Origin: an uncultured Kordiimonas sp.
GTDB lineage: Bacteria; Pseudomonadota; Alphaproteobacteria; Sphingomonadales; Kordiimonadaceae
Length of the DNA: 64,000 nt
Direction of reading: 5' to 3'
Assembly (NCBI GenBank): GCA_947503625.1
Contig: CANNEK010000001.1
Location: forward strand, 248,001-312,000
The notes beneath the pieces are model-generated. The model was not told the DNA's origin. It was given only the letters and a program-made list of their open reading frames with translations, and made no database searches. This document shows, piece after piece, positions 35,334-54,937 of this stretch (its first letter is position 1; the number at the start of each line of letters is the position of its first letter). Made by a program: the position numbers and the translations under genes.

Positions 35334-35348
35334 GTTCATTTTTTGTTC
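35334..35348. promoter_or_regulatory. LexA (SOS) box GTTC-N7-GTTC
   Basis: GTTCATTTTTTGTTC, 134 bp upstream of the ssb start. Confidence 0.8.
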
Positions 35349-36560: not shown

Positions 36561-36575
36561 GTTCTTTATTTGTTC
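36561..36575. promoter_or_regulatory. LexA (SOS) box GTTC-N7-GTTC
   Basis: GTTCTTTATTTGTTC, between GFA and uvrA, 92 bp upstream of the uvrA ATG. Confidence 0.85.
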
Positions 36576-51137: not shown

Positions 51138-51842
51138 TTACCCCTCTTTGAGACCTTTAAATCCCTGGGCCAGCACAAACCATTCTTTCGAGTCAGCCCG
51201 ACTGGCCGGCGGTTTGGCATGTTTCACCGATTTGAAGTGTTTTTGCATGCGGGTCATCAGCGTATTGTCACTGCCGCCCTGAAGTACCTTCGCGACAAAG
51301 GTTCCGCCCTCACCCAGTACTTTAATGGCGAAATCAAGGGCTGCTTCACACAGGGCCATCGTGCGTATCTGGTCTGTTTGCCGGTGACCGGTAGCCGAGT
51401 TTGCCATGTCAGACAAAACAACGTCCACCGGACCATCAAGTCCGGCCATGAGCCTTTCTTCTGTGTCTTTATCGAGGAAATCCATGACCAGGATATCAGC
51501 GCCTGATACAGGCTCCACTTCCTGAATATCGATACCTATAATCTGCGCGGTGGACGGCAGTTTTTCTGTAACCACCTGCAACCATCCGCCTGGCGCACAT
51601 CCTAAATCAACAACACGCTTCGAGCCCTTAAGAAACTGGTAACGATCATCAAGTTCTGCGAGTTTGAAAGCGGCCCGCGAGCGGTAACCCAAGCGGTTGG
51701 CTTCAGCAACATAGGGGTCGTTCAACTGCCGTTGTAACCATCGAGTTGAAGAAGGTTTGCGGCCACGCGCGGTTTTCACCCGTACTTTCGCGCCCCTTGC
51801 CCTGCTTCTCGTTTGCGATTGTCTATTCCAACCTTTTGACAT
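51138..51842 (-). CDS. rlmE: 23S rRNA (uridine-2'-O-)-methyltransferase RlmE
   Basis: RSRAAFKLAELDDRYQFLK, DLGCAPGGWLQV, SDMANSATGHRQTD; start overlaps the gppA stop (TAATG). Confidence 0.95.
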   Translation of the reverse strand: MSKGWNRQSQTRSRARGAKVRVKTARGRKPSSTRWLQRQLNDPYVAEANRLGYRSRAAFKLAELDDRYQFLKGSKRVVDLGCAPGGWLQVVTEKLPSTAQIIGIDIQEVEPVSGADILVMDFLDKDTEERLMAGLDGPVDVVLSDMANSATGHRQTDQIRTMALCEAALDFAIKVLGEGGTFVAKVLQGGSDNTLMTRMQKHFKSVKHAKPPASRADSKEWFVLAQGFKGLKEG

Positions 51843-53206
51843 TAGCTCGCCTTTTTATGTTTCTTGGCAGAATACTGCCTGTTTTTTTGTGGCTTGTCGT
51901 TTCGCGCGCGCTGCCTGGCGTGACGTGGCGGCTCGTCCATTTCCATTAGTCCGCGTAAAATACCTTCCCTGATACCGCGGTCGGCAACCCGTAAACTTGG
52001 AACTGGCCACATATCGAGAATCGCTTCAAGGATTGCACAGCCTGCGACCACAAGATCAGCACGTTCTTCACCGATACAAGGCTCTGCTGCGCGCTCTTCC
52101 GGCGTCATTTCGGCAACCTTTCGCGACAATACACCAATATCCCGGGACTTCATCCAGGCACCATCGACCCTGTCACGGATATAACGAGGCAACCCCAGAT
52201 GAAGGCTGGCAAGCGTCGTGACTGTACCGGATGTCCCCAGAAACTGGGTATGCCTGCCTTTCAAGACTGTACTCAATTGGTGCGCATCTTCAAATGCCTG
52301 AAGGTGTTCGGCCATCGTCGCGATCATTTTCTGATACTTTTTAGGCTTGGGTGTTTTACCGGGTTTTGAAAATTTCTCGGTTAGATTAACTACACCCCAG
52401 GGGACGGACATCCAGCCACATATTTCATTGGCCTTGCCGGGTCGGACTTTCACCCATATCAATTCGGTACTGCCACCGCCAATATCAAAAACCAGCACAT
52501 TCTTCTTATCTGGTGCAATCAGGGACTGACACCCCAGAACAGCAAGACGCGCTTCTTCTCCAGCAGATATGACATCAAGGTTGATACCGGTTTCACGTTT
52601 TACCCTGCTTACAAATTCATCGGAGTTTTCAGCAACGCGACACGCTTCCGTTGCCACATGGCGCATACAGGTAACGCTGCGACGTGCCAGTTTTTCAGCA
52701 CAAACCTTGAGCGCTTCTATGGTCCGATCCATCGCCTCTTCAGAGAGACGGTTGTCTTTACCGACGCCCTCGCCCAGTCGTACAATACGGGAAAAAGCGT
52801 CAATGACGCGAAAGCCGTTCTTTGTTTGTTTGGCTATCAAGAGTCGACAGTTATTCGTGCCGAGGTCAATAGCACTGTAAACAGCACTTTTTCGAGCAGA
52901 GTTTCCCTGATTCCTGCGACCATTGAGGACTTTTTTCGACTGATTGCTTTCAGCGGTTTCGCCTGCTGCAGGCTTCAGATGTTTTTCAGCTGTTAAAGAT
53001 TCTTCAGAAGGTCGGCGTTTTTTTCCGACACGCTTCTTCGAACGTTTCGAGGGTTTGTTGGCGAGATCGGCCTGCTGCTTTCCCGAGGACTGCTTACGCT
53101 TGTCACCTTTAGCATTCCTGCCTTCGGTGCCCGGTACTTTGTCCTTTTTCTTGGACTGTCGGGGCCGAACACCTGCGCCATCGTCAGCACGGATGTCCAG
53201 GGACAT
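51842..53206 (-). CDS. Ppx/GppA family exopolyphosphatase with basic N-terminal extension
   Basis: SAIDLGTNNCRLLIAK, FDIGGGSTELIW; about 105-residue Lys/Arg-rich N-terminus. Confidence 0.92.
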   Translation of the reverse strand: MSLDIRADDGAGVRPRQSKKKDKVPGTEGRNAKGDKRKQSSGKQQADLANKPSKRSKKRVGKKRRPSEESLTAEKHLKPAAGETAESNQSKKVLNGRRNQGNSARKSAVYSAIDLGTNNCRLLIAKQTKNGFRVIDAFSRIVRLGEGVGKDNRLSEEAMDRTIEALKVCAEKLARRSVTCMRHVATEACRVAENSDEFVSRVKRETGINLDVISAGEEARLAVLGCQSLIAPDKKNVLVFDIGGGSTELIWVKVRPGKANEICGWMSVPWGVVNLTEKFSKPGKTPKPKKYQKMIATMAEHLQAFEDAHQLSTVLKGRHTQFLGTSGTVTTLASLHLGLPRYIRDRVDGAWMKSRDIGVLSRKVAEMTPEERAAEPCIGEERADLVVAGCAILEAILDMWPVPSLRVADRGIREGILRGLMEMDEPPRHARQRARNDKPQKNRQYSAKKHKKAS

Positions 53207-53341: not shown

Positions 53342-53356
53342 GTTCTATTTTTGTTC
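53342..53356. promoter_or_regulatory. LexA (SOS) box 1, GTTC-N7-GTTC
   Basis: GTTCTATTTTTGTTC. Confidence 0.85.
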
Positions 53357-53384
53357 TTGACTTCAGGTGTCGAGAAAATATAGA
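53357..53384 (+). promoter_or_regulatory. Sigma70-like promoter TTGACT-N16-TATAGA between two LexA boxes
   Basis: -35 at 53357-53362, -10 at 53379-53384. Confidence 0.7.
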
Positions 53385-53397
53385 ACATTACAGGAAC
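53383..53397. promoter_or_regulatory. LexA (SOS) box 2, GAAC-N7-GAAC (inverted orientation)
   Basis: GAACATTACAGGAAC. Confidence 0.85.
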
Positions 53398-53411
53398 ATT
53401 GGAGAGACTAC

Positions 53412-53600
53412 ATGACTGTTAGCCACCTTTTAATACTCGGAGTATTTGTTTTCATCGGCAGTTTAGGTCTGTCAGCTGTACAGGCTTCGACGTCCAGGAT
53501 GGTGCCACACATTAAAGCAAGCTTAAGGTTGCAAAAGTCATCTCTCTACGGGCAGCGCCTGGACGGAAAAGTCGTACGACGAAAATTAGCCTGGAAATAG
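53412..53600 (+). CDS. Candidate SOS-regulated small basic membrane/secreted protein, 62 aa
   Basis: MTVSHLLILGVFVFIGSLGLSAVQASTSRMVPHIKASLRLQKSSLYGQRLDGKVVRRKLAWK; SD GGAGAG 5 nt before ATG; twin LexA-box promoter. Confidence 0.75.
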   Translation: MTVSHLLILGVFVFIGSLGLSAVQASTSRMVPHIKASLRLQKSSLYGQRLDGKVVRRKLAWK

Positions 53601-53669: not shown

Positions 53670-53880
53670 GTCTAAAAATAGACAAAGTTGCTGATTAGGT
53701 TTCAGATAAAAATAAGGCGCGGTGCACAGCCAATATCGGCAACAGCACCGCGCCTATTCCGAGCGAAACCCCCAGGTGAGGCCCGGTATCAGATTGTTTA
53801 GGGCGGCAGCAAATTCATGCGCCGGAAAGCTGATTTCACCTCCCCAAGTTAATCAGCTTAAAGCCCATCCCAACTGATGG
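53670..53880. ncRNA. Candidate structured non-coding region with four hairpins
   Basis: GTCTA-AAAA-TAGAC (53670-53683); AGGCGCGGTGC-N19-GCACCGCGCCT (53715-53755); AAGCTGATT-N15-AATCAGCTT (53827-53859); CCATC-N6-GATGG (53865-53880). Confidence 0.35.
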
Positions 53881-54073
53881 AATGCCATCGAACTGGATTT
53901 GACCTTCGGTGTCAAGTTTCGTTCATAAAAAATTAACAAATGGATACGTGACAACAAGCAACTGTGACTTTTTTGCTTCGACTCTTATCGTCGTCCGCGA
54001 ATTCCACCAAACAAAGGTTGTCAAAGAATCATGGCTAACGCCCCCGGGAGCCTCTTCAGTAAGCCAGGCTAAA

Positions 54074-54937
54074 TTAGCCGATCGGCTCGCCCTGATATTC
54101 GGAGACCCGGCAATATTGATCCGCACTGATACGTTTGATACGAGAGCACAACGCATCAGCTTCCTGTTCGTTTATCAGTGGGCCTGCAACAAGCCTCATG
54201 AAAGTACCAATACCTTCCTGGCTCTGCACATAGAGAAGTGGCGTGAGACCTTGCAGGTCACTCGCATAAGTCTGAGCGAGGTTATTCCATCCGCCACTCA
54301 CTTGGTCTCGACTACGAAAGGAAGCGAGGTGGACACCAAAAAATGACTCTTCATTGCGCTCTACATTAGCAACTGGCGTAGCATCAGCTTCCACAATTTC
54401 ACTTGCGTCTGCCCCCGCCTCTGACCTGCCTGTCGGCGCAGCTTCCGCAATAAAGGAAGGTTCACTGTTGTCAGCCATCTCTACCGAGAACAGCCGGTTT
54501 TCCAACTTCTTGATCTGGTCTCGCATAACAGAAACATCGTTACGCACACGGGTAACAGATGCCTCTACCTGAGGGTCTTTCTGGACTGTCGCGACTTTGT
54601 TCGTGATATCGGATATCTGCGCCTCTTGCGCCCTGATATGCTGGACCAGTTCAACATAAAGCCTTTCCAGCGCATTGAACCTGTCACGCAAAGCGCGATG
54701 GTCCTCGGAGACATAGTCGACATTTTGCTCGAGAGCCTGCTGTCGTGCTTCAACAAGCACTTCCTCACCCTGCCACATTTTCTGGCTTGCACATGACGGC
54801 AATGTAATCATAAGACCTGAAATCAGACCTATTCGGGCAAATTTGGCCCCGATACCAGAAGTTTTCACTATTGCCTGTTTCATTTTGCCGACCTTCCGTA
54901 TGGTGTTAAGGCTTTGAATTCCCAACACATCGCTCAA
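54074..54937 (-). CDS. SPOR-domain lipoprotein with coiled coil
   Basis: Lipobox LPSC-AS; heptad-rich RALRDRFNALERLYVELVQHIRAQEAQISDITNKV; C-terminal FGVHLASFRSRDQVSGGWNNLAQTY SPOR. Confidence 0.75.
   Translation of the reverse strand: MSDVLGIQSLNTIRKVGKMKQAIVKTSGIGAKFARIGLISGLMITLPSCASQKMWQGEEVLVEARQQALEQNVDYVSEDHRALRDRFNALERLYVELVQHIRAQEAQISDITNKVATVQKDPQVEASVTRVRNDVSVMRDQIKKLENRLFSVEMADNSEPSFIAEAAPTGRSEAGADASEIVEADATPVANVERNEESFFGVHLASFRSRDQVSGGWNNLAQTYASDLQGLTPLLYVQSQEGIGTFMRLVAGPLINEQEADALCSRIKRISADQYCRVSEYQGEPIG

What the first reader, a model, noticed from the sequence alone, without database searches (positions are those of the whole stretch)
53342..53600. Small basic membrane/secreted protein under a twin LexA-box promoter
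Two perfect LexA boxes of the alphaproteobacterial type bracket one promoter: GTTCTATTTTTGTTC (53342-53356) and GAACATTACAGGAAC (53383-53397), in opposite orientation and 41 bp apart start to start. The first abuts the -35 (TTGACT 53357-53362). The second overlaps the -10 (TATAGA 53379-53384). An SD (GGAGAG) and ATG follow at 53412. The 62-aa product has one hydrophobic N-terminal segment (HLLILGVFVFIGSLGLSAVQA, with a possible signal-peptidase site after VQA) and a tail with 10 Lys/Arg. Established: LexA in alphaproteobacteria binds GTTC-N7-GTTC, and small SOS-induced membrane proteins (SidA in Caulobacter, TisB in E. coli, YneA in Bacillus) inhibit division or depolarise membranes. I recognise no known family here. 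Inference: a new, tightly repressed SOS effector.
Basis: partly seen in the sequence, partly recalled or inferred. Interest (0 to 1): 0.9.

Follow-up and report, generated by a model that had tools for sequence, protein, structure and literature searches.

The report
Conserved SOS-controlled small membrane protein
A tiny, so far undescribed membrane protein that a marine bacterium should make only when its DNA is damaged is kept, with the same double off-switch in front of it, across the Kordiimonas family, and is most likely the brake that stops damaged cells from dividing.

Summary
Every element of the finding is present at the stated coordinates. The genome is Kordiimonas-like. The same architecture (two opposed GTTC-N7-GTTC boxes clamping TTGAC...TATA, then an SD and a small single-helix protein) occurs in 25 of 30 genomes of the family and 35 of 121 of the order. 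In the rest of the class it is at chance (2 of 386; reversed control 3). The locus is syntenic beside ppx/gppA, and the ORF is under purifying selection. Boxes of the same type precede uvrA, ssb and lexA here. In two other alphaproteobacteria the same twin promoter drives imuA-imuB-dnaE2. LexA control is thus very well supported by sequence. The secreted reading is not: no signal-peptide n-region, VQA not conserved; the model is one helix (2-42) with a disordered basic tail, probably N-out/C-in. No described family matches. Most likely it is the SOS division inhibitor of this group: SidA-like in role, not a SidA homologue. Caulobacterales carry a different LexA-boxed 30-31 aa peptide at dnaE (probably SidA) with opposite charge polarity; 13 sampled genomes of this order lack it there. 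Function is inferred, not shown.

The parts
53342..53356 (+). LexA box 1, GTTCTATTTTTGTTC, abutting the -35
   Evidence: conserved in 35 of 121 order genomes
53357..53362 (+). -35 element TTGACT
   Evidence: TTGA directly behind box 1 in 29 of 35 aligned promoters, TTTAC in 5
53379..53384 (+). -10 element TATAGA, 16 nt behind the -35, overlapping box 2
   Evidence: A/T-rich end of the spacer in most relatives
53383..53397 (-). LexA box 2, GTTCCTGTAATGTTC read on the minus strand
53401..53406 (+). Shine-Dalgarno GGAGAG, 5 nt before the ATG
53412..53600 (+). 62-aa small membrane protein gene (stop included); helix at residues 2-42, hydrophobic core about residues 7-23, disordered basic tail
51842..53206 (-). 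Ppx/GppA phosphatase family gene, divergent neighbour that marks the locus in relatives (synteny, not claimed as part of the mechanism)

Best explanation
A chromosomal SOS gene. LexA on the two opposed boxes covers the -35 and the -10 and keeps the promoter shut. After DNA damage, RecA-triggered LexA self-cleavage opens a strong promoter, and a leader of about 20 nt gives immediate translation. The 62-aa product inserts into the inner membrane as one helix, probably N-terminus out and basic tail in the cytoplasm, and acts as the DNA-damage division inhibitor of Kordiimonadales. The likely route is packing of its conserved F-x3-G-x2-G face against a divisome membrane protein (FtsW/FtsI/FtsN complex), which halts septal wall synthesis until LexA recovers. 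Shown by sequence: operators, promoter, coding capacity, conservation. Predicted: single helix. Strongly inferred: LexA control. Inferred: topology and division inhibition. Speculative: FtsW as the target.
For: Operator pair conserved with the gene and at chance elsewhere. Boxes of the same type at lexA, uvrA and ssb in this genome. The same twin promoter in front of imuA-imuB-dnaE2 in two other alphaproteobacteria. One gene at one syntenic place, under purifying selection. Single confident helix. Short leader with open SD. No SulA in the genome, and no SidA-like peptide with a LexA box upstream of dnaE in 13 sampled genomes of the order. Known SOS proteins of this build are division inhibitors acting on FtsW/I/N: SidA, DidA (PMC4211646), YneA (PMC13396833).
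Against: No induction, binding, expression or phenotype data. The tail is poorly conserved. No homology to any proven division inhibitor. Small SOS membrane peptides can also be depolarising toxins. An unrecognised division inhibitor could exist elsewhere in the genome. Topology rests on charge bias only.
Confidence: 0.6

Rival explanations
1. An SOS-induced depolarising membrane toxin of the TisB/DinQ kind, which slows growth or makes persister cells.
For: Small, hydrophobic, cationic, LexA-boxed; a conserved structured RNA lies just downstream on the other strand.
Against: Leader of about 20 nt, whereas tisB mRNA uses a standby site about 100 nt upstream of a sequestered RBS (PMC7708055). 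The downstream RNA pairs with the mRNA no better than with shuffles (74 of 100 as good). The helix core carries no charge. Stable, syntenic, single-copy locus.
Confidence: 0.15
2. An SOS-induced modulator of another membrane protein (a protease, transporter or envelope enzyme) that does not act on division itself.
For: Many small single-helix membrane proteins bind and tune larger membrane proteins (general knowledge); neighbours are gppA and a SPOR-domain protein.
Against: In family f8 the gene lies elsewhere, away from gppA, so there is no fixed functional partner. The characterised SOS proteins of this build found in the open papers mostly act on the divisome.
Confidence: 0.2
3. A secreted or periplasmic basic peptide released by signal peptidase (part of the first reader's suggestion).
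For: VQA follows the hydrophobic segment in this one species.
Against: No Lys/Arg n-region in 37 of 37 members; VQA not conserved; continuous helix through the supposed site.
Confidence: 0.02
4. The transcript acts as an SOS-induced RNA and the ORF is incidental.
For: The transcript would be short.
Against: pN/pS 0.014/0.135 and 0.046/0.187 in two species pairs, with 7 of 8 and 8 of 13 differences at third positions; residue-level conservation across genera.
Confidence: 0.01

Closest known systems
SidA, SOS division inhibitor of Caulobacter (CCNA_02004)
   Same: LexA-controlled small single-span inner membrane protein of an alphaproteobacterium (PMC4211646, PMC10769358). A probable SidA relative in a Robiginitomaculum MAG even has the same twin-box promoter.
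   Different: About 30 aa against 62. The dnaE-linked peptides have a basic N-terminus and end near the membrane; here the N-terminus is uncharged and a basic tail follows. No alignment. Different locus (gppA instead of dnaE).
DidA, Caulobacter
   Same: 71 aa, single helix with short flanks; damage-induced division inhibitor acting on FtsN/FtsW (PMC4211646).
   Different: DidA is SOS-independent (activated by DriD); here two LexA boxes. Sequence of DidA not available here for comparison.
YneA (Bacillus), with ChiZ and SosA
   Same: SOS-induced, one N-terminal helix; YneA's helix finds FtsW (PMC13396833).
   Different: No LysM domain and no homology found; predicted tail faces the cytoplasm, not the outside.
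TisB and DinQ (E. coli)
   Same: LexA-controlled small hydrophobic proteins.
   Different: No long structured leader, no evident antisense antitoxin, no charges inside the helix core.

Membership tests
Alphaproteobacterial LexA (SOS) regulon | GTTC-N7-GTTC box overlapping the promoter, conserved with the gene | tested here: met
   same box type at uvrA, ssb and lexA
Alphaproteobacterial LexA (SOS) regulon | RecA/LexA-dependent induction by DNA damage | not testable with these tools
   needs RNA-seq or a reporter
SidA family | Sequence similarity to SidA or its probable dnaE-linked relatives | tested here: not met
SidA family | Position upstream of dnaE | tested here: not met
   the gene is beside gppA; no LexA box or SidA-like boxed peptide upstream of dnaE in 13 genomes; that Caulobacter sidA lies next to dnaE is from memory
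SidA family | Inhibits division through FtsW | not testable with these tools
   needs expression, suppressors and two-hybrid tests
SulA | Pfam SulA (PF03846) | tested here: not met
   no SulA in the genome; no Pfam match for the protein
YneA/ChiZ | LysM domain behind the helix | tested here: not met
   no Pfam match; disordered tail
Type I toxin (TisB-like) | Antisense RNA antitoxin and a regulatory leader | tested here: not met
   leader of about 20 nt; no excess pairing with the neighbouring RNA; an unseen trans-encoded RNA is not excluded

The most novel reading that the evidence does not exclude
Alphaproteobacteria evolved small-peptide SOS checkpoints at least twice: a dnaE-linked SidA type with a basic N-terminus in Caulobacterales, and this gppA-linked type with inverted charge polarity and a doubly clamped promoter in Kordiimonadales. 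Two unrelated helices would converge on the same divisome step from opposite orientations.
Probability: 0.3. Interest if true: 0.7.

Novelty: new member of a known kind. Interest (0 to 1): 0.57.

Why it matters
SidA is the only SOS division inhibitor of an alphaproteobacterium met in the open papers found here. This family gives a concrete candidate, with about 35 natural variants, for testing how one short helix can stop the septal wall machine. It also offers a two-operator promoter clamp unlike the single-box SOS promoters that make up about 97% of those in Caulobacter (PMC12700426).

Tried and rejected
Rejected: secretion and signal cleavage; chance boxes (control); antisense pairing with the downstream RNA; the downstream RNA being 6S RNA, which lies elsewhere in the genome. 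Alignment A2 contains one wrongly chosen locus stretch and was replaced by A3.

Full report
Observation. The sequence at 53342-53600 is as described: box 1 at 53342-53356, TTGACT 53357-53362, 16 nt, TATAGA 53379-53384, box 2 (opposed) 53383-53397, GGAGAG 53401-53406, ATG 53412, stop codon 53598-53600; 62 aa with 10 Lys/Arg, all behind the hydrophobic segment. The consensus scanner missed the promoter only because it demands T at the last -10 position.

Is it under LexA? The genome has one LexA, with a box of the same type at its own gene. Two more boxes of the window precede ssb (box at 35334) and uvrA (box at 36561), both canonical SOS genes. The opposed pair, with 24-30 nt between the boxes, was sought in whole genomes. 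It occurs in 25 of 30 genomes of the family and 35 of 121 of the order, but in only 2 of 386 other alphaproteobacteria, where the reversed control pattern hits 3. A scan of one genome each from about 85,000 species for the pair with TTGAC gave 22 places, named mostly Kordiimonas, Kordiimonadaceae or other alphaproteobacterial records. Two outsiders (L047, a Filomicrobium MAG; L050, a Geminicoccaceae MAG) sit in front of imuA-imuB-dnaE2, a known SOS cassette (genes recognised by me from the translations). That is an independent positive control for the architecture.

Is it a gene? Homologues lie in the same place: divergent from ppx/gppA (PF02541), with rlmE beyond it, and convergent with a SPOR-domain protein. 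The 37 sequences gathered are 34-77 aa long (median 62), each with one hydrophobic helix. The consensus core is about MTxxHLxxLxxFIxxGxxG(L/M)AAxQDA; G16 is invariant and F12 nearly so in alignment A1. A profile built from A1 scores most family members between 1e-12 and 1e-20, then drops to noise (the members used to build it match by construction, but G012-G029 placements agree with the independent box search). Close species pairs show pN/pS of 0.014/0.135 and 0.046/0.187, with 7 of 8 and 8 of 13 differences at third positions. Genomes without the perfect pair often keep one perfect and one degenerate box with the same kind of ORF beside gppA (G004, G027, G040), or a single box (G035, G043). 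Three same-genus genomes that lack the perfect pair (G002, G005, G010) also lack a gppA match. In family f8 the gene lies elsewhere, between a TPR-repeat gene and a gene for a GGDEF-like protein in several members, with the same twin promoter.

What is the protein? AlphaFold2 gives one helix, residues 2-42 (mean pLDDT 96-98 over residues 1-30), then a low-confidence tail. No Lys/Arg occurs in the first six residues of any of 37 members, while the part behind the helix averages a net charge of +4.2. By the positive-inside rule this suggests N-out/C-in and argues against a signal peptide. No Pfam, PADLOC or PDB match was found; an NCBIfam match to antiporter subunit G is far below its cut-off.

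How it probably works. LexA on both boxes blocks the -35 and the -10; damage releases it; a short leader with an open SD gives prompt translation. Known SOS proteins of this build are division inhibitors acting on the septal wall complex: SidA on FtsW and DidA on FtsN/FtsW, DidA being SOS-independent (PMC4211646), and YneA on FtsW through its membrane helix (PMC13396833). The genome has no SulA. The conserved GxxG face is a plausible packing surface (inference). The TisB alternative is weakened by the short leader (tisB mRNA uses a standby site about 100 nt upstream, PMC7708055), the uncharged helix core and the lack of antisense complementarity to the neighbouring RNA, but it is not excluded.

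Comparison with SidA. The scan also found, in a Robiginitomaculum MAG, a 30-34 aa peptide under the same twin promoter just upstream of dnaE. Searching the order of that genome revealed a set of 30-31 aa single-span peptides next to dnaE, nearly all with one or more LexA boxes. They start MKQ, MRR or similar and end GG or GAA just behind the membrane span. SidA is 29 aa (PMC4211646) and is CCNA_02004 (PMC10769358); that it neighbours dnaE is from memory, so calling this set SidA is likely but not proven. The window protein does not align with the Robiginitomaculum peptide, has the opposite charge polarity and a different locus. Thirteen sampled genomes of its order have no LexA box upstream of dnaE. 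So it probably works like SidA, but it is not filed as SidA. About 97% of Caulobacter SOS promoters carry a single box (PMC12700426), so the twin clamp is unusual.

Verdict. A real, conserved, undescribed SOS gene family with a good functional hypothesis. No paper in the library joins Kordiimonas and LexA. Interest is moderate to high; the function needs an experiment.

Noticed in passing
window 53704-53917, minus strand (RNA about 53885 to 53710): A conserved structured RNA of about 170 nt with its own TTGACA promoter (53915-53910, minus) and a strong terminator hairpin lies between the small gene and the SPOR gene in 18 Kordiimonadaceae loci. It has no Rfam match, is not the genome's 6S RNA, and 15 of its 38 predicted pairs show compensatory changes.
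   Followed up: partly
L060, L119-L133, L135-L138, L143-L147: Caulobacterales-type genomes carry a 30-31 aa single-span peptide next to dnaE, nearly always with LexA boxes: probably the SidA family, far wider than Caulobacter itself.
   Followed up: partly
L047 and L050: The same twin-LexA-box TTGAC promoter stands in front of imuA-imuB-dnaE2 in a Filomicrobium MAG and a Geminicoccaceae MAG.
   Followed up: partly
window 35334-35348 and 36561-36575: LexA-type boxes upstream of ssb (minus strand) and uvrA (plus strand), as expected for SOS genes.
   Followed up: yes
window 54074-54937, minus strand: A SPOR-domain protein, possibly a lipoprotein, is convergent to the small gene in most relatives. 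SPOR domains can bind septal peptidoglycan, so a division link is conceivable but untested.
   Followed up: no
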